A stretch of DNA of 64,000 nucleotides. Source: Corynebacterium mustelae (GTDB lineage Bacteria; Actinomycetota; Actinomycetes; Mycobacteriales; Mycobacteriaceae). The notes below the pieces were generated by a model. The model did not search any database and was not told the origin of the DNA. It saw only the letters and a program-made list of their open reading frames with translations. Numbering within the stretch: position 1 is the stretch's first letter; each line of letters begins with the position of its first letter. This document shows, in pieces, positions 9,003-22,403 of the stretch. The position numbers and the translations under genes were made by a program. Location: the NCBI RefSeq assembly GCF_001020985.1, contig NZ_CP011542.1, positions 682,001 to 746,000 of the forward strand, read 5' to 3'.

Positions 9003-10430
9003 TTGTCCACGCAATCGGCTCAAGCAAAACGCATTGTTATTATCGGCGGTGGCCCAGCTGGCTATGAAGCAGCATTGGCGGGGGCAAAATACGGTGCTGA
9101 GATCACGATCGTGGAAGATTTAGGTCTGGGTGGTTCGGCCGTCATCCACGACTGTGTGCCATCCAAGTCGTTCATCGCGGGCGCCAACATCAAGACTGAC
9201 CTGCGGCGTGCCGATGACATGGGTCTTAACAAAGGGATCGGTGAGGCACATTTGCTTATCGACGCCCTCAATGCGCGTGTGCAACAACTTGCGGGGGAAC
9301 AATCAGCGGATATTCGCCGGAGCGTGGAGCGCGCCGGGGTACGTGTCATTAATGGGCGTGGCGTATTTGATGACTACAACACCAAGCAAACGTTGCACTA
9401 CATCAAGGTGGAAGGCGCCGATGGCGTAACGGAAACCATTGAATGTGACTTGGTGCTGGTTGCCACCGGTGCTACGCCACGGATTCTGCCGGATGCCCAG
9501 CCGGACGGGGAACGGATTTTAACCTGGCAGCAGATTTACAATTTGACTTCGCTTCCAGAGCACTTGATTGTTGTCGGTTCCGGTGTCACTGGTGCAGAGT
9601 TTGTTTCAGCATTTGCTGAGCTGGGCGTGAAAGTGACGATGGTTGCCTCCCGCGATCGGATTTTGCCACATGACGATGCTGACGCTGCTGATGTGTTGGA
9701 GACCGTTTTGGCGCAGCGGGGTGTGTCACTGGAGAAACACGCTAGGGTCGATTCAGTTACCCGCACTGACGACGGTGGCGTGTGCGTGCGTACTTCTGAT
9801 GGTCGCGAGATTTTTGGTTCCCATGCGTTGATGACGGTTGGTTCCATTCCAAATACGAAGAACTTAGGATTGGAGCACATCGGGATTGATACCACCGACT
9901 CTGGCCATATCAAGGTGGACCGGGTGTCGCGCACAAATGTTTCCGGCGTGTACGCCGCTGGTGACTGTACCGATTTGTTCCCCTTGGCGTCGGTCGCCGC
10001 GATGCAGGGGCGTATTGCCATGTACCATGCCTTGGGTGAAGGCGTTTCACCGTTGCGGTTAAAAACGGTGGCGACAGCGGTATTTACCCGACCAGAAATT
10101 GCTGCGGTGGGCGTTACCCAGAGCGAGATTGAGTCAGGTGCGGTGGTTGCCCGTTCAGTGATGCTTCCGTTGGAGACGAATCCACGGGCGAAAATGCGAT
10201 CGTTGCGGCACGGTTTTGTCAAGCTGTTTTGCCGCAAGAATTCCGGCATAATCATCGGCGGTGTCGTTGTGGCACCAACCGCGTCGGAGCTGATTCTGCC
10301 GATCTCGGTGGCTGTGACCAATAACTTGACGGTGAAGCAATTGGCGGAGACGTTCTCGGTGTATCCGTCCCTGTCGGGTTCGATCACTGAGGCTGCCCGG
10401 CAGTTGGTTGAGCACGACGACTTGGGTTAA
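9003..10430 (+). CDS. lpdA: NAD(P)H-quinone dehydrogenase LpdA-like flavoprotein
   Basis: 475 residues, two-dinucleotide-binding-fold flavoprotein. FAD binding is RIVIIGGGPAGYEAAL near the N-terminus, NAD(P) binding is LIVVGSGVTGAEFVSAF, and the second FAD motif is VSGVYAAGDCTD. The redox region reads GGSAVIHDCVPSKSFI: only one of the two active-site cysteines of dihydrolipoamide dehydrogenase remains. This matches mycobacterial LpdA (Rv3303c type), a quinone reductase, not a true Lpd. The start is TTG 9003, supported by GGAGG four bases upstream. In C. glutamicum the next gene is pyc; here 12 kb of accessory genes intervene, the first only 6 bases downstream. Confidence 0.92.
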   Translation: MSTQSAQAKRIVIIGGGPAGYEAALAGAKYGAEITIVEDLGLGGSAVIHDCVPSKSFIAGANIKTDLRRADDMGLNKGIGEAHLLIDALNARVQQLAGEQSADIRRSVERAGVRVINGRGVFDDYNTKQTLHYIKVEGADGVTETIECDLVLVATGATPRILPDAQPDGERILTWQQIYNLTSLPEHLIVVGSGVTGAEFVSAFAELGVKVTMVASRDRILPHDDADAADVLETVLAQRGVSLEKHARVDSVTRTDDGGVCVRTSDGREIFGSHALMTVGSIPNTKNLGLEHIGIDTTDSGHIKVDRVSRTNVSGVYAAGDCTDLFPLASVAAMQGRIAMYHALGEGVSPLRLKTVATAVFTRPEIAAVGVTQSEIESGAVVARSVMLPLETNPRAKMRSLRHGFVKLFCRKNSGIIIGGVVVAPTASELILPISVAVTNNLTVKQLAETFSVYPSLSGSITEAARQLVEHDDLG

Positions 10431-10436
10431 GCCGTT

Positions 10437-11324
10437 ATGACTTCTGTGGTTACTTCTGCACGTATTGTGGCTGCCCTTGATCGTTGTGGCGTGACAACCG
10501 GCACCGTGGTTGACGGTGGGGTTCAACTGATGGTTCCCAATGGTCAGATTACATTCCAATTGGCTACGAATGCGGCCATGATTCGGATGTTTGCCCAGTG
10601 GCGGGGTGAGGCCGTCACCCCTGATACCCAGCAGAGACTGTGCGCTGCAATCATGGATCTCAATGCGGATCGGTACATGCCGAAACTTATTTGGCAGACT
10701 TCGGCGGCGGGCGCGATTCGGGTATCTGCTGAGCAACGGATGCTCACCGGTCAGGGGCTAAGCGACGACCAATTGGCGCGCTTTATTGATTTGACCATTC
10801 GCACTACATTGGAGGCATTCGCCGATATTGAACAGGTGGTGCCTGAGACGGTGACGTGGCCGGTTGGTACCCCATTGATGCTAACCGACTGGTCGCCTAA
10901 CGTTGCCGTCCCTGCGTCTTTAGCTCAGGTCGAGTCGGTTTTTGCTGCCCAAGGCTGGGCCTACCAATTGCTTGATGGCGTTATGATGACCTCAAGCGAA
11001 GGATTCTGCGTGGATATCGATTTCCCATCCCAACTGTACTTAGGGGTGCGGGTATCTCACCCGCAGGCTCCACTTGCGCCTTCGCAGTTGGCTGCGGTGC
11101 AAAAGTGGGCTAATGACCGCAATGTTGCTGGTACATTGGGGATTTGCACGGTGAACCCTAACGACGACGGAACGTTATACGTGGCGAGTGACTACGTGTT
11201 TATCGCCGATACCGGGGCAACCAATGAGCAATTGGCGGAGTGGATTCTGGCAGCGATTTCGGTGCAAACCGGTAATTTGGTCGACTTCAGTCGCACGTTC
11301 CATATCCTGCCACCGGTGCAATAG
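10437..11324 (+). CDS. Fused two-domain YbjN-like protein (cassette 1)
   Basis: 295 residues with two related domains. The first half (about 1-140) is type A: SARIVAALDRCGV start, FAQWRGE, then LNADRYMPK and GLSDDQLARFI. The second half (about 155-290) is type B: LAQVESVFAAQGWAYQL, WANDRNVAGTLGICTV, and GATNEQLAEWILAAI. The same A then B order recurs in four more cassettes downstream. YbjN-like domains resemble type III secretion chaperone folds and bind protein partners; the role here is unknown. It begins 6 bases after lpdA with no clear promoter, so it may be read through from lpdA. No signal peptide. Confidence 0.8.
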   Translation: MTSVVTSARIVAALDRCGVTTGTVVDGGVQLMVPNGQITFQLATNAAMIRMFAQWRGEAVTPDTQQRLCAAIMDLNADRYMPKLIWQTSAAGAIRVSAEQRMLTGQGLSDDQLARFIDLTIRTTLEAFADIEQVVPETVTWPVGTPLMLTDWSPNVAVPASLAQVESVFAAQGWAYQLLDGVMMTSSEGFCVDIDFPSQLYLGVRVSHPQAPLAPSQLAAVQKWANDRNVAGTLGICTVNPNDDGTLYVASDYVFIADTGATNEQLAEWILAAISVQTGNLVDFSRTFHILPPVQ

Positions 11325-11724: not shown

Positions 11725-11850
11725 AAACCTGCAGGTAGGCATGGTTAGGGACGCGGTCGCCCGCAGGCAACTCGACCTTTACACGCTTCGGTGCATGGAT
11801 TCGGAGCCTCAGGGACGGAAAGGTCGAGTCGGGGTTGGGACACCGAACTG
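11725..11850 (+). repeat. Structured interspersed repeat, copy A
   Basis: The core runs from GGCAACTCGACCTTTACA to GGAAAGGTCGAGTCGGGG, so its ends can pair (ACTCGACCTTT / AAAGGTCGAGT) over a loop of about 45 bases. It is about 90% identical to copy B over 90 bases. Outer homology to the copies near 26 kb begins at AAACCTGCAGGTAGGC. Confidence 0.8.
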
Positions 11851-11926
11851 GCCACGCCGGAGATTAGTACTTGGGGCGAAGAATCGCAGCTTAGCCCACG
11901 GCGGATGCCAAGTGATGACGCCCTAA

Positions 11927-12051
11927 GAACCTGCCTTTGAAATGGGGAGCTGGCGCGATCACCCGTAGGCAACTCGACCTTTACAGGGTTCGGTGTATGG
12001 ATTCGTAGCCTTAGGGACGGAAAGGTCGAGTCGGGGTTGGGATACCGAACC
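11927..12051 (+). repeat. Structured interspersed repeat, copy B
   Basis: Direct repeat of copy A about 200 bases downstream. It has the same paired ends (CAACTCGACCTTTACA and GGAAAGGTCGAGTCGG) and the same loop backbone (TTCGGTGTATGGATTC, TTAGGGACGG). The differences from A include single-base changes in the loop, some of which look compatible with keeping the fold. Confidence 0.8.
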
Positions 12052-12384: not shown

Positions 12385-12831
12385 ATGAGCCTTCCTCCCG
12401 TTACTAATGATCGGATTGAAATGGCACTGGATTCGATGGGTTTACATTATGAACGCCAATCGGAAACGGTTACCCAGTTCTCTTTCGACAATGCCACCAT
12501 CGTGTGTGCCACCTACCCGGAGAACGCCTTGCTGCATTTCTTTGGCATGTGGCATGCCGTCATCGGCGACGATGTATTGCCTGACGTGACTGAATTTGTT
12601 GCTAGTTTGAATTGGAACCACTTTGTGCCAAAACACGGGGTGGCTATTTCTGATGATCACCGAGCCACCGTCACCGCAGATTATTATGTGTTCACCAACA
12701 CCGGACTCAGCGATGACCAACTGGGGATGGTGGTGGAGTCGTCGATACGCAATATCATGCTCAGCTTCAAAGATTGTGAGGACCGTTTCCCGCAATTGGT
12801 GCACTGGACATTGGTAGAAGAGGGAGCCTAA
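12385..12831 (+). CDS. YbjN-like domain protein, type A (cassette 2)
   Basis: A 148-residue single YbjN-like domain matching the first half of cassette 1: NDRIEMALDSMGLHYE, FFGMWHA, LNWNHFVPKHGV and GLSDDQLGMVVESS. It is soluble and acidic. The partner type B gene starts 3 bases after its stop, so the pair is one translational unit. The start is ATG 12385; only a weak GGAAACGAG lies upstream. Confidence 0.78.
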   Translation: MSLPPVTNDRIEMALDSMGLHYERQSETVTQFSFDNATIVCATYPENALLHFFGMWHAVIGDDVLPDVTEFVASLNWNHFVPKHGVAISDDHRATVTADYYVFTNTGLSDDQLGMVVESSIRNIMLSFKDCEDRFPQLVHWTLVEEGA

Positions 12832-12834
12832 CTC

Positions 12835-13293
12835 ATGTCATGGACGCACAACGTTGCGGAATCTGATCCCACCCCAGTGACACTGTCGCGGGTTGAGGCG
12901 ATTTTTCGCAAGAATAACGTGGAATGCGAAGTCGATGAGGGCGGCTTGTCCACCTGGATCCAAGGGTATTTTTCGTTTTTCCAGCTTTTAGGCGAAAAGA
13001 ACCTTGTGTTTAGCGTGCGGCGGGAGAATTCGGAACTGGATATTTCCAAGCTCCCCATTGTTAAAGAATGGGCTAATATTCGAAATTCACGTGGCACGGT
13101 TGGTACCTGCGCCTACGAGGTTGCGGACGGTACGATTCGGTTTACTGTCGCCCACGCCATCCCAGTTATTTTTGGTGCCACTGATCAACAATTAGAAGAG
13201 TGGATTCTTACTGGTACCGCACTGCTCGTGGAGCATTTAGAAACACTTAATGAAATGCTGGGGTTGGCTGAAGCGGGTTGGATACGGCCGTAA
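12835..13293 (+). CDS. YbjN-like domain protein, type B (cassette 2)
   Basis: 152 residues, matching the second half of cassette 1: LSRVEAIFRKNNVECEV, FFQLLGEKNLVFSVR, WANIRNSRGTVGTCAYEV and GATDQQLEEWILTGTALLVEHLE. The start is ATG 12835, 3 bases after the type A gene. It is one of the more diverged B copies, with F and V where others carry the I-P-D-A-L strand. Function unknown. Confidence 0.78.
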   Translation: MSWTHNVAESDPTPVTLSRVEAIFRKNNVECEVDEGGLSTWIQGYFSFFQLLGEKNLVFSVRRENSELDISKLPIVKEWANIRNSRGTVGTCAYEVADGTIRFTVAHAIPVIFGATDQQLEEWILTGTALLVEHLETLNEMLGLAEAGWIRP

Positions 13294-13389
13294 CATTAAA
13301 AAACTTTTATTGAAGTTTGTTGCGCCACCCAATGAATGAAGTTTCGATAAACTTGGCACGGTTATTCTCAATTGAAGTAAAGGAGTTTC

Positions 13390-14652
13390 ATGGTTACTTC
13401 CACTGTGACCCAAGAGCGCATTGAAGCCACACTTGGGAAAATGGGGATAACCAGCAACACCCCTAGCGATAGCATCGTGCAGATTGACACGGAACACGCT
13501 ACGATTCTGTGTCAATTACTGCCCCGCGCCCAACTGCTGCGAGTCCTTGGCATCTGGCGCCCTGACGTTTCCGCTGATTATCATGCAGCGGTGCGCGAGA
13601 AGGTTCAACATTTGAATAACGAGAAACTGGTGCCCAAGCACAGTGTCGTGGACAATGATACTGACAGCCTGAGCGTGGTTGCGGAATACGCTATGCCGAT
13701 CGGGGAGGGGCTTGACGACGCCCAACTGGGGCTCGTGCTTGAGGTGGCGCTGCATAACATGCGGCAATCATTTGACGTATTCGACGCCGACTTCCCCGAG
13801 TTAGTCACTTGGAAAGAATCAGAAGAGGAACCAAAGACCCCGACTGATGGCGAAAGCGACAACGACACAACGCCCCCGGTAGTTGTCGTGCAAATCTCCA
13901 ATCAAGCGGTGGCGTCACCCCACCTGGTTTTGCAGGAAATCTCACAGGAAACCACCCTCACCCCAGAAGAAGCGCCGCAGCCAGCTGAGGACAAAGCGGC
14001 ACAACCTGACACGGATGAACCGGCACAACCGACCGGGGGTGAAGAACCAGCACAGCTTGCTGAGGAACAAGCATCGGATTCAGCCCTGTCACCTGCCGCC
14101 ACGGAATCCGAGCCGGTTGCGAACGCAACAGAACTAGAAGACGAAACATTAGCGGCAGAAGACGCGCAAAGCCCAGAGGAAACGCCGGAGCAACACTTGG
14201 GTCAACCTGCGGTGACAATGGCGCGGGTGGTGGATTATTTCGTCAATCACGGCTACCAATACGAAATCATCGACAATGCGCTCTTTACTGGTTTCAATGG
14301 ATTTCTCGTTCGCGCGCATGTTGCGGACAAGCAGATGCTGCGGGTCAACGCCGCCCATCCGTCTGCCGCCATCGCGGAGGGGTCGATCCCGGCTCTTGCT
14401 GATTGGGCAAATACTCGCAACCAAGGTGGTTCCATTGGCAGCTGTACCTTCGTGATGGAAGAAACCGGTGACATTCATGTTGCAAGCGATCATGCTTTCG
14501 CTATCAAATACGGCGCCTCTGACGAACAATTGGCCTCCTGGTTAGACGCGGGGATTGATGCCCAGTTAGCGCATTTGGAAGATTTGGTAGCTAGTTTCGA
14601 TATTCCTCGTTTTTACGAAGAAACACCACAACAACGCCATGAGCATAACTAG
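13390..14652 (+). CDS. Fused two-domain YbjN-like protein with a long acidic linker (cassette 3)
   Basis: 420 residues. Type A domain at about 1-140 (QERIEATLGKMGI, LGIWRPD, LNNEKLVPKHSV, GLDDAQLGLV). Type B domain at about 271-415 (MARVVDYFVNHGYQYE, WANTRNQGGSIGSCTFV, GASDEQLASWLDAGIDAQLAHLEDLV). Between them is a disordered Glu/Pro/Ala/Gln-rich linker of about 130 residues with degenerate AQPxxDEPAQP units. The linker suggests two domains that act at a distance. ATG 13390 has AAAGGAG 6-7 bases upstream, and a TATTCT at 13363 is a candidate -10. Confidence 0.8.
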   Translation: MVTSTVTQERIEATLGKMGITSNTPSDSIVQIDTEHATILCQLLPRAQLLRVLGIWRPDVSADYHAAVREKVQHLNNEKLVPKHSVVDNDTDSLSVVAEYAMPIGEGLDDAQLGLVLEVALHNMRQSFDVFDADFPELVTWKESEEEPKTPTDGESDNDTTPPVVVVQISNQAVASPHLVLQEISQETTLTPEEAPQPAEDKAAQPDTDEPAQPTGGEEPAQLAEEQASDSALSPAATESEPVANATELEDETLAAEDAQSPEETPEQHLGQPAVTMARVVDYFVNHGYQYEIIDNALFTGFNGFLVRAHVADKQMLRVNAAHPSAAIAEGSIPALADWANTRNQGGSIGSCTFVMEETGDIHVASDHAFAIKYGASDEQLASWLDAGIDAQLAHLEDLVASFDIPRFYEETPQQRHEHN

Positions 14653-14752
14653 CGCATCTACCGATGTGCTGGTTTATGCCAGCTCGCATAACGTATCCGC
14701 ACGACTCCGATTGAGTACCAAGATTTGCGGCCACAGGTCTGTGTCGGGGTGC

Positions 14753-14794
14753 TTCGCTATTCTATGAGCGCACATTAAAATCCAAGGAGGATAT
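14753..14794 (+). promoter_or_regulatory. Conserved leader of YbjN cassette 4 (candidate -10 and strong RBS)
   Basis: TTCGCTATTCT, with TATTCT at 14758-14763 as candidate -10, is followed by a short AT-rich leader and AAGGAGGATAT directly before the ATG. The same arrangement precedes cassette 5, so promoter and ribosome site were duplicated with the genes. I see no well-spaced -35. Confidence 0.5.
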
Positions 14795-15235
14795 ATGAGT
14801 TTAGCTGCGGTAACGATTCCGCGTATCGAGGAAACGTTGGATTCGATGGGGATTGGGCACCAGACAGACGACGATGAAATCGTCATAGGGTTTGATAACG
14901 CATTAGTTTTTATCTTTTTGTTTTCTGACATCAATCTGATGGAGATATCCGCGATGTGGGGTTCAAAAGTTCTTAAAGAAAACCATGAGTTGGCGGCTCA
15001 TCTTTGCGTGAGATTAAATGAGCAATTGTATCTTCCTAAAATGTGTTACCTCGTTGATGCAGATGACAACATGACGATCGTCGCCAAGCATGCTATGCCG
15101 ATCGGGTCGGGGATGACCGATAAACAATTAGAGGACTGTATACGAGCGACCTTTGCGCACGAATTCACTGCCATAGAAAAGTTTGAGGAGACATTCCCGC
15201 ACGTGGCGGCCGGGAATCACGGGAGTGGGGCATAA
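14795..15235 (+). CDS. YbjN-like domain protein, type A (cassette 4)
   Basis: A 146-residue type A domain: IPRIEETLDSMGIGHQ, FLFSDINLMEISAMWG, LNEQLYLPKMCYLVD, GMTDKQLEDCIRATF. It is closely related to the type A gene of cassette 5 (SLAAVTIPRIEE against SLPAVTIPRIEE), which points to a recent duplication. An AAGGAGG site precedes ATG 14795, and the type B partner starts 2 bases after the stop. Confidence 0.8.
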   Translation: MSLAAVTIPRIEETLDSMGIGHQTDDDEIVIGFDNALVFIFLFSDINLMEISAMWGSKVLKENHELAAHLCVRLNEQLYLPKMCYLVDADDNMTIVAKHAMPIGSGMTDKQLEDCIRATFAHEFTAIEKFEETFPHVAAGNHGSGA

Positions 15236-15237
15236 TC

Positions 15238-15681
15238 GTGGCATGGTTTAAAAAAGCGGATTGGCCGCAGCCAGTAACCATTGATCGGGTAGAGCAGGTC
15301 TTTAAACACAACAACCTTAGCTACACGCGACGTGAGGATGGCATCACGGCCATGATCGACGGGTTTTTCCTTTGGGTCACGATCCCTGACGGAAAAGCAC
15401 TGGATTTCGGGTTCCGATTCTTTGAGGTTCCGCTAACTGAGGAAGCATTGCCGAAAGCCCAACGCTGGGCCAAGGAGCGAAATCTCGACGGAACAATCGG
15501 AACGTTTGGCGTCGGCGTTCATGACGACGGCGAGGTTTACGTTTCTTCCCAGCATGCGTTCCTTGTCACACAAGGTGCAACAGATGAGCAATTGGCGGAG
15601 TTCTTTCAGGTGGGAATCCAAGCCCAGCTGGATAACTTGGAAGATTTCGTCGAAGAATTTGGCATTGAACGCCAGCAGTAG
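15238..15681 (+). CDS. YbjN-like domain protein, type B (cassette 4)
   Basis: 147 residues, starting at GTG 15238 right after the type A stop. Type B signature: IDRVEQVFKHNNLSYT, GFRFFEVPL, WAKERNLDGTIGTFGVGV, and GATDEQLAEFFQVGIQAQLDNLEDFVEEF. It is near-identical in layout to the type B gene of cassette 5. Soluble, acidic, no signal peptide. Confidence 0.8.
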   Translation: MAWFKKADWPQPVTIDRVEQVFKHNNLSYTRREDGITAMIDGFFLWVTIPDGKALDFGFRFFEVPLTEEALPKAQRWAKERNLDGTIGTFGVGVHDDGEVYVSSQHAFLVTQGATDEQLAEFFQVGIQAQLDNLEDFVEEFGIERQQ

Positions 15682-15840
15682 CGCGGAAAATAACGGACAC
15701 TCTGGGCGGCTGAGGCTTGGGAATCGTCGACACGCTAGGCAGGGTTTGTGCTGCTTGGTTGGGTCAGCGATGAGGCTGGTTTTCCGGTTCAGTCACAATG
15801 GCGTAACAAGATTTTCAACTTGAATTGTCTGACGTCTAGT

Positions 15841-15882
15841 TTCGCTATTCTTTGTTCAGTTGCATAAAAATGAGGAGGATAT
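15841..15882 (+). promoter_or_regulatory. Conserved leader of YbjN cassette 5 (candidate -10 and strong RBS)
   Basis: TTCGCTATTCT at 15841-15851 (candidate -10 TATTCT at 15846) and GAGGAGGATAT before ATG 15883 repeat the leader of cassette 4. A TTGAAT at 15820 is a possible -35 but the spacing (20) is long. Confidence 0.5.
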
Positions 15883-16323
15883 ATGAGTCTACCTGCGGTA
15901 ACAATCCCGCGAATCGAGGAAATGTTGACCTCGATGGAACTTAAATATGTGACGGAAAACGGCGCGATTAAAGTAGCCTTCGATAACTGCTTGGTGTCTA
16001 TCTTTCTTTATTCCGAGCCGGATCTGATGGAAATAAGCACGATGTGGCGGGCGGAGATCTCAAAAGAACACCATGAGGCGGTGGCTCGGTTATGTGCCGA
16101 GATAAATGCAGAGATGTTTTTCCCAAAAATGGGCTATCACGTTGACGATGAAGACGACATGACGGTTATTGCCGAACACGCCACACCTATTGCAGCGGGG
16201 TTAACGAACGAACAATTACATGAGTGCCTTGGCGCTACCTTTTCGCAGTCGTTAATGGCGTTAAGTAAGTTTGAGGAAGCATTCCCGCATTTGGTTACGT
16301 GGGAAGAAGAGGGTGAGGAATAA
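15883..16323 (+). CDS. YbjN-like domain protein, type A (cassette 5)
   Basis: 146 residues, type A: IPRIEEMLTSMELKYV, LYSEPDLMEISTMWRAE, INAEMFFPKMGYHVDDEDD, GLTNEQLHECLGATF. It is the closest paralogue of the cassette 4 type A gene. GAGGAGG precedes ATG 15883. Three bases separate its stop from the type B partner. Confidence 0.8.
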   Translation: MSLPAVTIPRIEEMLTSMELKYVTENGAIKVAFDNCLVSIFLYSEPDLMEISTMWRAEISKEHHEAVARLCAEINAEMFFPKMGYHVDDEDDMTVIAEHATPIAAGLTNEQLHECLGATFSQSLMALSKFEEAFPHLVTWEEEGEE

Positions 16324-16326
16324 ACA

Positions 16327-16782
16327 ATGGCGTGGTTTACAAATACGGATGAGCCGCAGCCGGTAACCCTAGCGCGGATAGAGAAAGTTTTTAAGGATAA
16401 CGACTTTAGCTATGACAATCGCGGGGATCATCTTGCGACCGGTGTGAATGGTTTCTTTCTGCGGGTAGAAATCATCAACGACGCGTTGCTGTATTTCGGT
16501 TTCCGGTTCTTCAACGTGCCGTTGCCGAAGGAGAAATTGCCGGATACCGAAAGCTGGGTGCAAAACAGAAATCTCTATGGCACGATTGGCACCTGTGGTG
16601 TTGGTATTGACGATGACGGCGATGTGTACGTCGATTCCGACCACGTTTTCTTCATCGCAAAAGGTGCGACAGACGAGCAGCTGTCGTTATATTGCCAGAC
16701 GGGGATTGAAGCCCAATTGGAGCACCTGGAAGACTTCGTTGAGAAATTCGAAATTGAGCGCCCGCTGCCCGAGGAAGAGTAA
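16327..16782 (+). CDS. YbjN-like domain protein, type B (cassette 5)
   Basis: 151 residues, type B: LARIEKVFKDNDFSYD, FLRVEIINDALLYFGFRFF, WVQNRNLYGTIGTCGVGI, GATDEQLSLYCQTGIEAQLEHLEDFVEKF. The tail is acidic. It is the last YbjN gene before the TPR/HSP90 genes, with only 57 bases to the next start, so the operons may be joined. Confidence 0.8.
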   Translation: MAWFTNTDEPQPVTLARIEKVFKDNDFSYDNRGDHLATGVNGFFLRVEIINDALLYFGFRFFNVPLPKEKLPDTESWVQNRNLYGTIGTCGVGIDDDGDVYVDSDHVFFIAKGATDEQLSLYCQTGIEAQLEHLEDFVEKFEIERPLPEEE

Positions 16783-16839: not shown

Positions 16840-19347
16840 ATGATGGAGCAAGAGACCTTAAGCGATCTGATGGAAAAAGCAGATGCAATGCCGTGGGGTA
16901 AAGCGTGCTCAGCGGCGTGGGGGGAAGCCGCCAAACGCGCGGGCGAGGAGGGCGACGAATACCTTGAAGCGATTTGCTATCTGTCGCTGGTTAGCGCCTT
17001 TGCTATGGGTGGTGAGAGCACCCGCATTGTCGCACCGTTTTTATGGCTGGATAAATTCCGTAAGCGGCGCCCCGATCTTTTCGACGACGACATGCAGTCC
17101 GCATTCGGATGGCAATACAAATACCTGGTAGGAGTGTTGCGCGATCTGCCTACCATCAGTGCTGATCAGCTGCTTGGCACCCTTGATGAGATGGAAGCCT
17201 TCTACCGACAACGCGGCGATAACCTTAAGGCGTACTACCTCAGGCGCTATTTTGCGCACTCCGCGTTAGGGCAAGCCGAAAAAGCGCAGCACTATAGTCA
17301 GCTGTGGGAGACGGCGTGGGCCGACGATAGCCACACCGAGTTCAACGACTGCACCGGCTGCGACCCGATGTATTTGGTGGAAATGTATCTTGGGCGCGGG
17401 GACATCGATGCGGCTATTAAGGCGGGGGAGCGAGGGCTTTCTGATCCGGAGAATTTCTGCGATTCGCAACCTGAGAGCCTGTATGCCACCATGCTAGAAC
17501 CATGGCTACGGGCTGGATATGACGATAAAGCATGGCCAGCCTTCGTCAAAGCCATGCAGAAGCACTCCCGACGCAGCGCCTATATTGATCATTTCCCGAA
17601 TCACTTCCAATACCTGGGGTTATCGGCGATGGCGGGGCGGCCACAGCGGTGGCAACGCGGGATGGAACTATTCACCCGGTTTTTACCCTGGTGGCAAGAA
17701 ACCGAAACGCCACGCATCCTGTTAAGCGTTGCCGCCGCAGCTGCGTTTTTCTTCCGGGCGTACCCTAACCAAGACGAGACCATACCCGTTACCCTGCCTG
17801 GCGACGGCTTAGGGTGGACCACAGCTCCAGTCATCGAAAACCCAACAGTAGCCCAAGTACATCAGTGGTGTACCGACCTGGCTTTGGAGCTGGCGGTCCA
17901 ATACGATAACCGCCCGGGTTTGGAAACCCCCTATATGGTGGAGAAAGTACGTCGGGATATTTTTGACGTCCAGCCAGTGCCGGAGCTTGCGCCGGAGGGC
18001 GATATCCCAGATGTTTCCGGGCAATTCGCCCCCGCACAGATCGACTACGGTTTGGTTAACCAAGGCCGCAGTGTCGCTGACAGTGATCTAGCTATTATCG
18101 ACACGAACGGTAGCTGGCGCAGCTATGACGCTGCGCAGCTTGCCGCTGCAGCGCAGGAATTAGATTCCAGAATCCCCAGCATTTACACGCTCCGAACTGG
18201 AGGATGGCTACTTTCACAGCGGTTATCCGCAGGGGTTGAGCGTGAACCTGCCAGAGAGATGCTTGCTGGTGCGTTGGCGGAATTCGACGCGGGCAATATG
18301 CGCGAAGCCGCGCAGCTTGCGGATACCGCTATTCACACTGAGTCCGAAGAACCAATCGGGGTGCGACTCCAGGGGCTTTATATTTTGGCGCGGGCAGCGC
18401 AGGCGGCCGGTTACCCAGACGAAGCCAAAGCTCCCGCCCGGCACTGCCTAAACTTGGCTGCCGCTTGCGGTTTACTCAATGTACGGTTGCAGGCCGCAGA
18501 GATTCTCGTGGAGGTATTATCCTCGCAACGGGAATTTTCCGAAGCTGCTGAGGTCGCAGATATTGCCATCGCGGCCGCCACCAATGCTGACAACCATGTC
18601 GCCTCCGATGTTGAGCTCTCCTTGCGGCGTGGTTTGATCAGCGCCTTGGACGCACTAGACATGGATGCTGCAGCAGCGGAACACGCCCTAACCTTGGCGT
18701 CGCTTAGCAGTAAGCCGAAAGAGAAAATCGAGGCCATTGAATCCGCCATTCGCGGACTCAATGCTGAAGGCAACTACGATCGGGGCGCCCAATTGGCCGA
18801 CTGGATTGTCGACATTGCGGCTGCCGGGTTAGATGAAGCTCAAGAAGCCGGTGACCAGGAAGCGGTAACAATGGCCGCCACCGAATACGTGGAGCGGTTA
18901 AGCAACGCAGCGTGGGTGCGGGTGAGCCGCCCTGGCTATGTTTCGGACGCGGTGTATGAACAGGCGGAACGACTATTTGAAACCGCATTTGAAGCAAAAA
19001 AGAACTATCACTTAACTAACGCAGCGCACCCAATGGCGGTGGATGCGAAGTATTGCCACGAACGGGCCCAAGCGGCTAGTGAATGTGATCGACATGGGGA
19101 AGCCCAAAAATGGTTTGAGCAGTCCCGTGATCTATTTATCGAAGCCGGAGATGATTTATCAGCCGCATATTGCACCATCGATTTAGCAACAATGTTGGTG
19201 CAGATCGGTAGGATCGCGCACGCCCGCGAACTGGCAATTCCAGCCTGGGAACAGATTCAATCCACTAAAAACCAGTTTTCGATGCGGTACCGACATGCAC
19301 GAATGCTGATGGAATTTTTAAACACGGAAGAAACCGACGATAATTAG
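16840..19347 (+). CDS. Large tetratricopeptide-type helical repeat protein
   Basis: 835 residues, essentially all helical, no signal peptide or membrane segment. The N-terminal half (about 1-380) contains AYYLRRYFAHSALGQAEKAQHY, FCDSQPESLYATMLEPWLRAG, and VAQVHQWCTDLALELAVQYDNRPGL. The C-terminal half has TPR-like pairs (DAGNMREAAQLADTAIHTE, REFSEAAEVADIAI, AAAEHALTLASL, DRHGEAQKWFEQSRDLF). Its N-terminal half is homologous to the TPR gene on the other side of the HSP90-like gene. TPR proteins commonly dock onto HSP90, and the order TPR-HSP90-TPR supports such a complex by inference. AGAAGGA lies upstream of ATG 16840; ATG 16843 is equally possible. Confidence 0.82.
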   Translation: MMEQETLSDLMEKADAMPWGKACSAAWGEAAKRAGEEGDEYLEAICYLSLVSAFAMGGESTRIVAPFLWLDKFRKRRPDLFDDDMQSAFGWQYKYLVGVLRDLPTISADQLLGTLDEMEAFYRQRGDNLKAYYLRRYFAHSALGQAEKAQHYSQLWETAWADDSHTEFNDCTGCDPMYLVEMYLGRGDIDAAIKAGERGLSDPENFCDSQPESLYATMLEPWLRAGYDDKAWPAFVKAMQKHSRRSAYIDHFPNHFQYLGLSAMAGRPQRWQRGMELFTRFLPWWQETETPRILLSVAAAAAFFFRAYPNQDETIPVTLPGDGLGWTTAPVIENPTVAQVHQWCTDLALELAVQYDNRPGLETPYMVEKVRRDIFDVQPVPELAPEGDIPDVSGQFAPAQIDYGLVNQGRSVADSDLAIIDTNGSWRSYDAAQLAAAAQELDSRIPSIYTLRTGGWLLSQRLSAGVEREPAREMLAGALAEFDAGNMREAAQLADTAIHTESEEPIGVRLQGLYILARAAQAAGYPDEAKAPARHCLNLAAACGLLNVRLQAAEILVEVLSSQREFSEAAEVADIAIAAATNADNHVASDVELSLRRGLISALDALDMDAAAAEHALTLASLSSKPKEKIEAIESAIRGLNAEGNYDRGAQLADWIVDIAAAGLDEAQEAGDQEAVTMAATEYVERLSNAAWVRVSRPGYVSDAVYEQAERLFETAFEAKKNYHLTNAAHPMAVDAKYCHERAQAASECDRHGEAQKWFEQSRDLFIEAGDDLSAAYCTIDLATMLVQIGRIAHARELAIPAWEQIQSTKNQFSMRYRHARMLMEFLNTEETDDN

Positions 19348-19404
19348 CGCATTACCACTCATTGTCGATAGTGGTTATAAACCTTTTAAGGAAGAGATTC
19401 TCAA

Positions 19405-21246
19405 GTGTCTGAGTTTATTACTGACCCCCACACCCCCAATCCATCCGGCAGCAATGGTGGATCATTCCACGTTGATTTGGGTGGAATTGTGGAGTTGCTC
19501 AGTAAGAACCTCTACACCAGCTCCAACGTGTATGTGCGGGAGTTGCTGCAAAACGGTGTCGATGCGATTACTGCTCGGCGCGGTATTGACCCAGAATTCG
19601 ACAATTATGACCGCCCCAAGATCCGGTTCATCGTGGAACCCCGCGTACTACGAGTGATCGATAACGGTATTGGGCTTAACTATGAACAAGCTCAGCAATT
19701 ACTATCGACGATCGGCGGATCATCTAAACGAGATGAATTTGGGTTGGGGCGAAGTGACTTTCTCGGCCAATTTGGCATCGGCTTATTATCGTGTTTTTTA
19801 GTGTCCAATGACATTGTCGTCTACTCAGCTAGTGCCGCCGCACCAGCCATTAAATGGCATGGAAAATCTCAAGGTACGTGGACAGTAACAGAACACGAAC
19901 CCCCTATGCTGTTGCACGGCTGCGGCACGCTGGTGGAATTACAAGCGATTCCTGGCGAACCGGACTTTGACATGTTTAGCTTGTCGCAAACCATAGAACA
20001 CTATGCGGCATTTTTGCCGGTAGAAATAACTATTGAACGCGCGGTTAATGGCGTGTGCTCTGGTGAAGCTGTAACTTTGGGTGGGCAGAAGCCAGTGTGG
20101 GAAGCCCCCATTACAGCACAAGCAGCGTGGTGTCGAGAAAACTTTGGATTTGAACCATTGGCAGCTATTCCGCTGGATGTTGCTATAGCGGGGCTCAACG
20201 GGGTTGCCTTTGTCATGTCGGAAGGAACGCATCCGGGGCGAACCGCAAAACACCAGCTGTATCTACGTCGAATGTTATTAAGCAAGAAAAACACCGACAT
20301 CGTTCCGGAATGGGCGTATTTTGTGCGGATCGTAGCGGATGCGGAATTCCTGCGCCCCACTGCCTCCCGCGATGCACTGGTGGAGGATTCGCTTTTCGAC
20401 GAGACCAAAGAAGCCATCGGACACCAAATCCGGGTTTGGATCAATAGCCTAAACGAACAGGATTTTTTGCGGTTTTTGAGCCTGCACATGGCCGGGCTGA
20501 AAGCCCTTGCCGTTTCGGACAGTGAAACTCGCGAATTGGTGACCAAGTGGGTGCCATTCGAAACCAGCACGGGACGAAAGACACTTGATGAATTGTTGAA
20601 ATCTGGCGGAATTCGTTACTACCGCACTGACCAGAAATACCAATCTGTATTGCCGATTGCGCGGGCAAATGAACTGACGGTTTTAAATGCTGGCTATGCT
20701 TATGACCAAGAAATCCTTGATCAACTGCGGTTGGACTACCCAGATCAGGTTATCGTCGAAGCCAGCTTGCATGATGTTATTGGGGTCATGGGGGTATTAG
20801 GCCCAGACCAAGAAGCTGGATTTCTACCGTTGATGCGTATCGCCCAAGAGGCATTGGATGGCCAAGATGTGTCGGTTATTGTGCGGGATTTTCAGCCTAG
20901 TACCGTGCCAGTGTTGTTCTTAGCGGCGGAAGAAGCCGACTACGGTTCCATAGAGAAAGCTGCGCGGGAAGCTGAAGGCGAAAGTTCGCTAGCGGGTTTG
21001 CTCGATAGCATGGACTCCATCATGCCAATGCATGTGGTGGACAATACCGCCCAGGTTATTTTTAATGTTCAGTCCCCATTGATCCATCAGTTACTTGCGG
21101 CTGTGGGTATGGGCAATGATGTGTTAACCCAGGCTATCCGGGGGCTTTACGTTCAATCGTTATTAGCGGGACGCCACAATATGAATATCCAAGCACGAAC
21201 GTGGGCTTCAGAAATGTATTCCACCTTGATTAGCAAACTTCTGTAA
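19405..21246 (+). CDS. HSP90 family (HtpG-like) ATPase
   Basis: 613 residues. The GHKL ATP site is intact: RELLQNGVDAI (45-55, catalytic Glu46, Mg-binding Asn50, Asp53), VIDNGIGL (84-91) and DFLGQFGIGLLSCF (118-131). The middle domain keeps the LYLRRMLLSKKNTDIVPEWAYFVRIV and SRDAL segments typical of HSP90. The C-terminal dimerisation part is diverged. It is not the standard HtpG but a relative found in some actinobacteria next to TPR genes. The start is GTG 19405 with AAGGAAGAG 8-9 bases upstream. It lies 57 bases after one TPR gene and 11 before another, so the three form an operon. Confidence 0.9.
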   Translation: MSEFITDPHTPNPSGSNGGSFHVDLGGIVELLSKNLYTSSNVYVRELLQNGVDAITARRGIDPEFDNYDRPKIRFIVEPRVLRVIDNGIGLNYEQAQQLLSTIGGSSKRDEFGLGRSDFLGQFGIGLLSCFLVSNDIVVYSASAAAPAIKWHGKSQGTWTVTEHEPPMLLHGCGTLVELQAIPGEPDFDMFSLSQTIEHYAAFLPVEITIERAVNGVCSGEAVTLGGQKPVWEAPITAQAAWCRENFGFEPLAAIPLDVAIAGLNGVAFVMSEGTHPGRTAKHQLYLRRMLLSKKNTDIVPEWAYFVRIVADAEFLRPTASRDALVEDSLFDETKEAIGHQIRVWINSLNEQDFLRFLSLHMAGLKALAVSDSETRELVTKWVPFETSTGRKTLDELLKSGGIRYYRTDQKYQSVLPIARANELTVLNAGYAYDQEILDQLRLDYPDQVIVEASLHDVIGVMGVLGPDQEAGFLPLMRIAQEALDGQDVSVIVRDFQPSTVPVLFLAAEEADYGSIEKAAREAEGESSLAGLLDSMDSIMPMHVVDNTAQVIFNVQSPLIHQLLAAVGMGNDVLTQAIRGLYVQSLLAGRHNMNIQARTWASEMYSTLISKLL

Positions 21247-21257
21247 GTAGGTAAGTC

Positions 21258-22403
21258 ATGGTGGAACATTCAGATACTGAGTTAGAACAACTCATGGAAA
21301 CCGCGTGGGCGACACAAGACCCGGTTGAACGAGCGGTGGCATGGGAACATGCTTGCCTGCGTGCGCGAACTGAATCCAACAACGATGACCTCGCCGTATG
21401 CCTGTCAGAACTGGTGGAATTGTACCTTGCAGAGCGTCACACGCAGGCCGCTATCGTATGTTTCGACGAATTGGTGGAGCTTTATCTCAACCAGGATTTG
21501 GAACAACGGGTGTACTTCGCCCGAGTGATTTGCCGGAATTTCAAACACATCATTCACGGCCAATTAGATAACCCTGATGTCTCCGTGGCGAAATTGCATA
21601 TTTTGCTGGAACGTTATCGCCACATACTAGAGCGTAGCTCAAACACGCTGTCGGATTATTATCTTCGTACGTATTACGTGCGGCACTGCATTGGTGATTA
21701 TGACGGTGCATTGATGGCATTTGAACAGTGGCGATCCAGTCGGCCAGATGAACACTTTGGGGAATGTCTATGTTCCGTGCCTGCAATCGAAGCAGAGATA
21801 CTTAATCAATTAGGTGGGGCTGAAACCGCTCGTGAAGTCGGGGAAGCTGCCTTGCAGGAAAACACCGGGCGCTGCGGAGAGCATCGACAAGACTTAGAGA
21901 TGACACTGATACCAGCATGGCTTAGGTCGGGGCAATCAGATAAAATCCGGCGTGCTCGGCGGATTCATCGCAAAGTACTACGCCGTACCCTCACAACTGG
22001 TGCTACCCCGCGTCGATTTGTGCAACACTTTGAGTATTACGCGTTGCTTATCGACGCCGGTATGTCCCCGAAACCTCGGTGCGGATTATGGTTGTTGCCG
22101 ACCATGCTAGAAGAGCTTTCTGCTAATGCTTCCCAGTATGATCTCATGTTGGGTCTGGCGGCTGCGGCTGGTTATCTTCATCGAGTTCCGCAGCAGGATC
22201 GGAGAATAAAGCTCTCCCTTTCCGCCAATGCGCTACCACGAATTTTCACGCCAGCTCTCATTCATCCCACTGTCGCCGAAGCGGCGAAATGGTGCGCCTG
22301 CAACGCATTAAATATTGCTAAACAATACGATCATAGGCCTGGTTTGGTTCGACCCCACACGGTGGCTGATCTAAAGGATCGGATTTTCCCTCGCCCGATA
22401 TAG
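21258..22403 (+). CDS. TPR-type helical repeat protein, paralogue of the N-terminal half of the upstream TPR protein
   Basis: 381 residues, helical, no signal peptide. It repeats landmarks of the 835-residue protein: DYYLRTYYVRHCIGDYDGALMAFEQW (AYYLRRYFAHSALGQAEKA in the other), a central MTLIPAWLRSGQSDK (TMLEPWLRAGYDDK), and HPTVAEAAKWCACNALNIAKQYDHRPGL (NPTVAQVHQWCTDLALELAVQYDNRPGL). It lacks the C-terminal repeats. It starts at ATG 21258, 11 bases after the HSP90-like gene. Probably a second client or co-chaperone arm (inference). Confidence 0.8.
   Translation: MVEHSDTELEQLMETAWATQDPVERAVAWEHACLRARTESNNDDLAVCLSELVELYLAERHTQAAIVCFDELVELYLNQDLEQRVYFARVICRNFKHIIHGQLDNPDVSVAKLHILLERYRHILERSSNTLSDYYLRTYYVRHCIGDYDGALMAFEQWRSSRPDEHFGECLCSVPAIEAEILNQLGGAETAREVGEAALQENTGRCGEHRQDLEMTLIPAWLRSGQSDKIRRARRIHRKVLRRTLTTGATPRRFVQHFEYYALLIDAGMSPKPRCGLWLLPTMLEELSANASQYDLMLGLAAAAGYLHRVPQQDRRIKLSLSANALPRIFTPALIHPTVAEAAKWCACNALNIAKQYDHRPGLVRPHTVADLKDRIFPRPI

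What the first reader, a model, noticed from the sequence alone, without database searches (positions are those of the whole stretch)
16840..22403. HSP90-like ATPase flanked by two related TPR proteins
The 835-residue and 381-residue proteins share several landmark segments and lie on either side of an HSP90-type ATPase with an intact ATP site, in one operon. HSP90 partners are classically TPR proteins in eukaryotes; a dedicated bacterial TPR-HSP90-TPR operon next to a YbjN expansion is unusual. The close spacing (57 and 11 bases) and paralogy suggest one complex with two scaffold arms. A defence, stress or secretion role cannot be told from sequence.
Basis: partly seen in the sequence, partly recalled or inferred. 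Interest (0 to 1): 0.75.

Follow-up and report, generated by a model that had tools for sequence, protein, structure and literature searches.

The report
Bacterial HSP90 with dedicated TPR partner
This stretch encodes a true HSP90-type protein-folding machine beside two related helical-repeat proteins, and in the genomes compared here this kind of HSP90 nearly always comes with such a partner, which makes the partner a candidate for the helper protein that bacterial HSP90s were said to lack.

Summary
In a Corynebacterium genome an 835-aa TPR-like solenoid protein, a full-length HSP90 (NF010683) and a 381-aa relative of the solenoid protein's first half lie head to tail, 57 and 11 bp apart, behind YbjN genes. 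Of 296 class genomes, 36 carry this HSP90, 38 the partner family, 35 both; of 43 genomes with only HtpG-level matches, 1 has the partner. A partner gene lies beside the HSP90 in 12 of 13 Corynebacterium loci, 39 of 40 class loci and 78 of 80 named loci (overlapping sets). The pair recurs in one Paenibacillus and one Listeria record, there with the N-terminal form alone (320-353 aa). So it is a conserved HSP90 unit, not an oddity of this genome. The partner's N-domain keeps three cysteines (145 of 148 rows) and carries different C-terminal modules: none, a TPR solenoid, or, in three proteins, a YbjN domain. Best reading: a dedicated co-chaperone or client adaptor, with a constant HSP90-side domain and a swappable client-side module. 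Complex formation is inferred, not shown. Papers seen say no obligate bacterial HSP90 co-chaperone was known; I found none on this pair.

The parts
16840..19347 (+). TPRlong, 835 aa: partner family with N-terminal solenoid (about residues 7-375), linker, second solenoid (about 470-829)
17350..17361 (+). C171-x2-C174 of TPRlong; with C207 (17458-17460) and H255 (17602-17604) a probable metal or thiol site
   Evidence: C171, C174 and C207 in 46 of 46 rows, H255 in 44 of 46; all three Cys in 145 of 148 rows, His in 137 of 148; metal binding is inference
19405..21246 (+). HSP90 (NF010683/PRK14083 type), 613 aa, N, middle and C-terminal domains
19540..19554 (+). E46...N50 of the HSP90 nucleotide site (further invariant residues D86, G88, G90, GQFGIG 121-126, T175)
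   Evidence: invariant columns of alignment A1, 20 sequences; residue roles recalled
20368..20370 (+). R322 in the middle-domain loop TASR
   Evidence: invariant in 20 of 20; its catalytic role is recalled from HSP90 biochemistry
21258..22403 (+). TPRshort, 381 aa: N-domain-only paralogue, similar in size to the Bacillota partners
   Evidence: A3 profile 139.4 bits
21765..21773 (+). altered Cys motif of TPRshort (C-x-C-S where the family has C-x2-C)
   Evidence: of the three rows without the full Cys set, the other two are a broken frame (L105) and a poorly aligned row (L104 upstream copy)
12385..16782 (+). seven YbjN-family genes (12385-12831, 12835-13293, 13390-14652, 14795-15235, 15238-15681, 15883-16323, 16327-16782)
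   Evidence: PF10722 (12835-13293 just below cut-off, 21.8 versus 22 bits)
10437..11324 (+). eighth YbjN-family gene (295 aa, two matching stretches), 6 bp behind the oxidoreductase gene 9003-10430 and separated from the other seven by a gap

Best explanation
A dedicated HSP90 machine with an obligate adaptor. The HSP90 dimer (fold and ATP site shown, dimer inferred) runs the usual ATP clamp cycle. Its operon neighbour is its co-chaperone or client adaptor: the N-terminal solenoid with the C-x2-C...C...H site is the constant part and is the one that should dock on HSP90; what follows it is a swappable client-side module, namely nothing (Bacillota, TPRshort), a second TPR solenoid (most Actinomycetes seen) or a YbjN domain (three proteins). 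YbjN proteins, which have a type III chaperone-like fold, act in trans or in cis as further client binders. In the window the partner exists twice, a full-length form upstream and a minimal form at the usual downstream place, with eight YbjN genes, so one HSP90 could be served by alternative adaptors. Shown: genes, folds, linkage, fusions. Inferred: binding, docking side, metal, clients.
For: Co-occurrence in 296 class genomes: HSP90 36, partner 38, both 35, Fisher p 8e-41; genomes with only HtpG-level matches: partner in 1 of 43. Genus: 12 of 12 HSP90 genomes have the partner, 4 of the other 109 do. Adjacency on the same strand: 12 of 13 genus loci and 39 of 40 class loci, 77 of 80 named loci by rule plus L145 from its printed coordinates. 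Four-base gene overlaps in L030-L032 and L077 and Paenibacillus. Pair kept in Paenibacillus and in Listeria with two tandem partners. Partner N-domain fused to a C-terminal YbjN domain in L137, L174 and L175. In 5 of 5 class genomes with two pair copies, HSP90 and partner keep the same paralogue type; distance correlation 0.90 over 133 pairs. In three Corynebacterium genomes the unit follows a groES-groEL pair (named by eye) with a CIRCE-like element.
Against: No interaction, client or phenotype was tested. Linkage cannot tell co-chaperone from obligate client. HSP90 without a neighbouring partner: L086/G269 and L087 (Corynebacterium sp. ES2730-CONJ). Partner without this HSP90: G215, G209, G415, G118 (53% complete), an extra copy in G316 and in the window's own genome, and an Actinomyces oris record with YbjN plus partner, no HSP90 annotated in the 17 kb fetched and not among the four plasmid records with this HSP90. 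The fusions in L174 and L175 are in loci without this HSP90. The distance correlation is also what common descent of two linked genes gives. No heat-shock operator was found at the window, a weak test because that scan also missed the groES sites. The HSP90 model is moderate (pLDDT 79.8).
Confidence: 0.62

Rival explanations
1. The TPR protein is not a helper but the one obligate client: a fast-evolving signalling or scaffold protein that needs its private HSP90 to fold or assemble.
For: One-to-one linkage fits a dedicated client as well. Partner distances between the two paralogue types (about 2.2-2.5) exceed HSP90 distances (about 0.9-1.0). Partners without this HSP90 exist.
Against: The solenoid is predicted with high confidence, not obviously a hard folder; the Bacillota form is only 320-353 aa; eight loci carry two partner N-domain frames; partners occur without this HSP90, which an obligate client should not.
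Confidence: 0.18
2. A defence or other conflict system: HSP90 as ATP switch, TPR and YbjN proteins as variable recognition parts.
For: Patchy in Corynebacterium (12 of 121); four plasmid records; many YbjN genes and duplicated partners in the window; HSP90 N-domains hit PADLOC TmtA models, 31.5 bits for the window protein and up to 53.8 bits for the Listeria one.
Against: The TmtA hits lie in the shared ATPase domain (residues 28-143 and 9-136), the models being 1302-1782 long; none of the seven TPR or partner proteins scanned had a hit (two, five). No effector domain seen. Neighbours look like chromosomal housekeeping genes, judged by eye. No relative in viral contigs.
Confidence: 0.1
3. The functional core is the partner with YbjN; the HSP90 is an optional addition.
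For: G215 and a second copy in G316 have a YbjN gene beside a partner-YbjN fusion without this HSP90; Actinomyces oris likewise YbjN plus partner; YbjN stands beside the unit in 8 of 13 Corynebacterium loci and 7 of 80 named loci.
Against: YbjN was found in 0 of 40 class loci by two profiles, the narrow one checked to find the distant YbjN genes of L174 and L175, while 39 of these 40 have HSP90 plus partner.
Confidence: 0.08

Closest known systems
HtpG / bacterial HSP90 (HTPG groups A, B, C of Chen et al. 2006, PMC1525184, passages seen)
   Same: Full-length HSP90 fold and ATP site. That paper reports two HTPG copies (638 and 615 aa) in S. coelicolor, in different groups, and HTPG in only some Corynebacterium species.
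   Different: Subfamily NF010683 rather than HtpG NF003555 (523.3 and 138.9 bits against cut-offs 455 and 371) and tied to a partner gene, which HtpG-level matches are not (1 of 43). Which published group it is was not tested, the tree figure not being held; group C is my guess.
Eukaryotic TPR co-chaperones (Hop, FKBP51/52, PP5, SGT1; recalled)
   Same: TPR solenoid partner of an HSP90
   Different: No C-terminal EEVD on the HSP90 (0 of 136); partner has a Cys site and, in long form, two solenoids; operon-encoded
M. tuberculosis HtpG with DnaJ2 (PMC10269695, search listing only)
   Same: Title reports a metal-dependent bacterial HSP90 directly associated with a J-protein co-chaperone
   Different: By name an HtpG, and the partner is a J-protein of the DnaK system, not a TPR protein; the paper was not read
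YbjN/AmyR/DR1245 family (PF10722)
   Same: Members lie beside the unit or are fused to the partner; fold known as class I type III chaperone-like (PMC5398634, abstract start and passages)
   Different: That paper finds no secretion role for YbjN; here eight genes precede one HSP90 unit
Proteobacterial second HSP90 with TPR-like gene (E. coli FDAARGOS_144, Salmonella SARB27, Xanthomonas pXVH29, a P. aeruginosa record)
   Same: HSP90-like gene followed within 1-36 bp by a gene for a 764-774 aa protein; the Salmonella one has weak TPR hits, the Xanthomonas one is annotated TPR, and all four share an invariant C-x2-C
   Different: Salmonella HSP90 is below the NF010683 cut-off (285.8 bits); profile A3 does not find its partner; profile-profile probability only 21%, though the C-x2-C motifs align

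Membership tests
HSP90 family, subfamily NF010683 (PRK14083) | Curated score cut-off | tested here: met
   523.3 bits, cut-off 455
HSP90 family, subfamily NF010683 (PRK14083) | HSP90-type ATP site and middle-domain arginine | tested here: met
   invariant E46, N50, D86, G88, G90, GQFGIG, T175, R322 in 20 sequences; residue roles recalled
HSP90 family, subfamily NF010683 (PRK14083) | C-terminal domain present | tested here: met
Canonical HtpG (NF003555) | Curated score cut-off | tested here: not met
   138.9 bits, cut-off 371
Eukaryotic-type EEVD/TPR-clamp system | C-terminal EEVD on the HSP90 | tested here: not met
   0 of 136 HSP90 frames end in EEVD; the window protein ends SKLL
TPR superfamily (long protein) | TPR repeats recognisable in sequence | tested here: inconclusive
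   window protein TPR_12 23.4 bits, cut-off 30.1; of five relatives scanned two pass TPR_12 (L055, L077), L072 passes TPR_2 only, L082 and L088 (downstream copy) pass none
TPR superfamily (long protein) | Helical-pair solenoid | tested here: met
   pLDDT 90.7, helices throughout; LGN/Pins TPR chains align with TMt up to 0.61
YbjN family (PF10722), for the upstream genes | Curated score cut-off | tested here: met
   seven of eight genes over 22 bits, the eighth 21.8
HSP90 co-chaperone | Direct binding to HSP90 and effect on its cycle | not testable with these tools
   only genetic linkage and domain fusions with YbjN shown
Anti-phage defence system | Known defence genes or effector | tested here: inconclusive
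   only TmtA similarity in the ATPase domain, 31.5 bits over residues 28-143

The most novel reading that the evidence does not exclude
Bacteria have a second, widespread HSP90 class with its own obligate TPR-type co-chaperone, old enough to be in Actinomycetota, Bacillota and Pseudomonadota. The partner is modular: a constant HSP90-side domain with a C-x2-C...C...H metal or redox switch, and an exchangeable client-side module (TPR or YbjN). TPR-HSP90 teamwork would then not be a eukaryotic invention.
Probability: 0.3. Interest if true: 0.9.

Novelty: new variant of a known kind. Interest (0 to 1): 0.7.

Why it matters
In the passages I saw, PMC3708813 (2013) says that no obligate HSP90 co-chaperones are identified in bacteria, and leaves the Hsp90B and Hsp90C paralogues out of its co-evolution analysis; PMC8082187 (2021) says that Hop, Aha1 and p23 have no apparent eubacterial orthologues. 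Here one HSP90 class other than HtpG shows near one-to-one linkage to a single partner family, and the partner is fused to a YbjN domain in three proteins. That turns an open question (does any bacterial HSP90 have a dedicated co-chaperone, and what are its clients?) into a simple pull-down and ATPase test with purified proteins or in a laboratory Streptomyces.

Tried and rejected
Defence reading: PADLOC scans gave only ATPase-domain hits. Phage link: viral contigs gave no relative; the phage collection lists 32 records, ten of them seen in the listing, mostly short, distant or bacterial-looking contigs. Heat-shock operators: a CIRCE/HAIR scan of the window, L024-L038 and L047-L166 found one HAIR-like site, inside L087; a looser CIRCE core search over 166 loci found sites only in L030-L032 and L090; of these I read only L031, where it precedes groES, and L090 seems to be the same contig as L031. 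Promoters and terminators did not exceed shuffles. Other conserved neighbours: beyond partner and YbjN, the commonest neighbour clusters of the 80 named loci reach 14 loci and look genus-bound, by eye. The gene before the second Streptomyces-like copy (cluster c13, 7 loci) has no Pfam hit in the one member scanned. The first own-genome ATPase search did not list the window gene and was not used. Fold search with the long TPR model gives only generic TPR superhelices. Whether the Cys/His site closes in space could not be checked, no coordinates being at hand. Ten paper searches (open-licence PMC only) listed no paper on this pair. The main texts of PMC7159879 and PMC13092281 do not contain Hsp90 or YbjN (term searches).

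Odds were moved for that reason: best explanation 0.60 to 0.62, client rival 0.20 to 0.18, YbjN rival 0.07 to 0.08.
Full report
What is there. The window lies in a 3.47-Mb genome that is Corynebacterium by its nearest named proteins. Three genes run head to tail on the + strand: TPRlong 16840-19347 (835 aa), HSP90 19405-21246 (613 aa), TPRshort 21258-22403 (381 aa), with gaps of 57 and 11 bp. Upstream are eight YbjN-family genes, seven of them together; downstream is a pyruvate carboxylase gene.

The HSP90. It passes the NF010683 (PRK14083) cut-off with 523.3 bits against 455 and fails that of HtpG (138.9 against 371). A profile of 20 relatives matches E. coli HtpG (2iop) over positions 4-573. 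The model (pLDDT 79.8) aligns with solved full-length HSP90s to residue 613. Catalytic residues are invariant. None of 136 HSP90 frames of the collected loci ends in EEVD. It is the only match in this genome in a search whose control also rings for E. coli and B. subtilis, so the genome appears to have no other HSP90.

The partners. TPRlong is modelled with high confidence (pLDDT 90.7, pTM 0.82) as a first solenoid (about 7-375), a linker and a second solenoid (about 470-829). TPRshort is 26% identical to the first solenoid. In 148 aligned N-domains (149 found, one shorter than 250 residues dropped) the cysteines C171, C174 and C207 are all present in 145 rows and position 255 is His in 137. 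The three rows without the full Cys set are a broken frame (L105), a poorly aligned row (L104, upstream copy) and TPRshort itself, whose motif is C-x-C-S. I read the site as probable metal binding or thiol chemistry; this is inference.

Is the link more than chance? Genus: HSP90 in 12 of 121 genomes; partner N-domain profile in 16 of 121 at E up to 1e-6, including all 12. The other four are G118 (53% complete, E 4e-73) and three weak hits (G003, G029, G039). Class: HSP90 over cut-off in 36 of 296, partner in 38 of 296, both in 35 (Fisher p 8e-41). Control: 43 genomes whose best match lies between 1e-130 and 1e-30, the level of ordinary HtpG (picked by hand from the table; not scored with the HtpG model); 1 has the partner (G215). 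Phylum draw, sharing genomes with the class draw: HSP90 in 8 of 246, partner in 10 of 246, all from this class, and all 8 have both.

Adjacency. Genus: 13 HSP90 loci in 12 genomes, 12 with a partner gene next to the HSP90 on the same strand. The 13th (G024, L026) has 1.6 kb of visible downstream sequence without a partner; upstream, at the contig edge, is an 88-codon frame that clusters with the TPR proteins, and the N-domain lies on another contig; the contigs were not joined. Class: 39 of 40 loci, exception L086; open frames in these high-GC genomes often begin too early, and for L048 the order is taken from the profile matches. Named genomes: 77 of 80 by a distance rule; L145 fails it only because its profile envelope overlaps the HSP90; L122 has the partner 1.4 kb downstream; L087 has none in the locus. 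The three sets overlap and must not be added up.

Age and form. In Paenibacillus cellulosilyticus the HSP90 overlaps by four bases a 353-aa partner. In Listeria monocytogenes the HSP90 (NF010683 799.4 bits) is followed by two tandem partners of 324 and 320 aa, 72% identical. These are two records met through plasmid searches, not a survey. All three partners keep the three cysteines but not the His. So the minimal partner is the N-terminal solenoid alone, like TPRshort. In a tree of N-domains TPRshort groups with the 390-aa protein of G118 (support 0.999), which shares neighbouring gene families with the window, while TPRlong groups with the partners of L033 and L034 (0.695). C. mendelii L088 repeats the window's order (two YbjN, TPR, HSP90, TPR). 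In five unnamed class genomes with two pair copies (one genus, Streptomyces-like in size and genes by my reading) each HSP90 type keeps its own partner type.

Modules. In three proteins the partner N-domain is followed by a YbjN domain instead of TPRs: L137 (Catellatospora tritici, directly behind the HSP90; YbjN 68.3 bits at residues 394-517, N-domain at 1-361), L174 (G215; 61.5 bits) and L175 (G316 second copy; 62.9 bits). In all three another YbjN frame lies just upstream (of the HSP90 in L137, of the fusion in the others). Such fusions are the best sign that YbjN and partner work together. YbjN genes stand beside the unit in 8 of 13 Corynebacterium loci, in 7 of 80 named loci (L088-L090, L092, L095, L104, L137; L090 is the same contig as L031) and in 0 of 40 class loci.

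Proteobacteria. A hit in the phage collection led to a divergent HSP90 in Salmonella SARB27 (NF010683 285.8 bits, HtpG 195.4) followed after 2 bp by a 769-aa protein with weak TPR hits. A 4-kb query over both genes is matched over at least 80% of its length in 245 of 5,426 complete E. coli genomes, all in the 60-80% identity band. A Xanthomonas plasmid, where the second gene is annotated as TPR, and a P. aeruginosa record have the same order, and the four second proteins share an invariant C-x2-C. Homology to the actinobacterial partner is not established (no A3 hit; 21% in profile comparison, with the C-x2-C motifs in register).

Mechanism. Shown: a complete HSP90 with intact active site; a confident solenoid partner with a conserved Cys set; tight linkage over long evolutionary time; exchange of the partner's C-terminal module. 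Inferred: physical complex, docking side, co-chaperone or adaptor role, metal. The strongest rival is an obligate client; orphan partners and double partners speak against it. A defence role is not excluded. Placement behind what reads as groES-groEL in three Corynebacterium genomes, with a CIRCE-like element, leans towards proteostasis; whether the HSP90 shares that promoter is unknown.

Against known work. PMC3708813 (passages) and PMC8082187 (passages) are quoted under Why it matters; PMC1525184 (passages) describes HTPG groups A, B and C; PMC5398634 (abstract start and passages) describes the YbjN fold. PMC10269695 (listing only) reports M. tuberculosis HtpG associating with DnaJ2, so 'no bacterial HSP90 has a helper' should not be said without that reservation. 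PMC6901971 (passages) calls the Listeria gene lmo0941 a hypothetical protein of unknown function; that lmo0941 and lmo0940 are the two partners is recalled naming, not a call. None of the ten searches listed a paper on the pair.

Verdict. The HSP90 class itself is known; the partner and the linkage appear undescribed in what I could search.

Noticed in passing
window 11740-12050: A 97-111 bp element stands twice in the gap before the YbjN array (91% alike); four more matches at 72-75% identity lie in the genome, two of them at window about 26.2-26.5 kb.
   Followed up: partly
G000 C1:1324045-1325151 (L036 9348-10817): A third partner-family protein (489 aa, Cys site intact, no YbjN domain) stands between what look like lysA and hom genes (recalled by eye), with no HSP90 or YbjN found beside it.
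   Followed up: partly
L137 11779-13350, L174 8957-10609, L175 8265-10019: Partner N-domain fused to a C-terminal YbjN domain.
   Followed up: yes
L030, L031, L032: groES-groEL (by eye) followed by HSP90-TPR-YbjN, with a CIRCE-like element (read only in L031).
   Followed up: partly
L184 4001-8144 and 245 of 5,426 E. coli genomes: A second HSP90-like gene ('ATP-binding protein') plus a 768-aa protein gene between fdhD and a yiiG-family gene in a minority of E. coli (neighbours seen in one genome).
   Followed up: partly
L182 6319-11036 (Actinomyces oris record): YbjN genes and a partner-family gene without an annotated HSP90 in the 17 kb fetched.
   Followed up: partly
L177 8873-12181: Partner-family protein without this HSP90, directly followed by a cyclic-nucleotide-binding domain protein.
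   Followed up: no
L067, L068, L069, L070, L072, L074, L075: An unnamed protein family (cluster c13, 7 members) sits upstream of the second Streptomyces-like HSP90-TPR copy; no Pfam hit in the member scanned.
   Followed up: partly
L187 4929-9792 (Pseudanabaena plasmid): A longer HSP90-like ATP-binding protein (877 aa) with a TPR gene two genes on and a TIR-domain gene upstream on the other strand; may be a defence system.
   Followed up: no
G000 C1:1398000-1417900 (L037): Another cluster of proteins with weak similarity to the TPR partner.
   Followed up: no
control set: NF010683 rings in E. coli, Deinobacterium chartae and C. glutamicum, two over cut-off (which two is not told).
   Followed up: no
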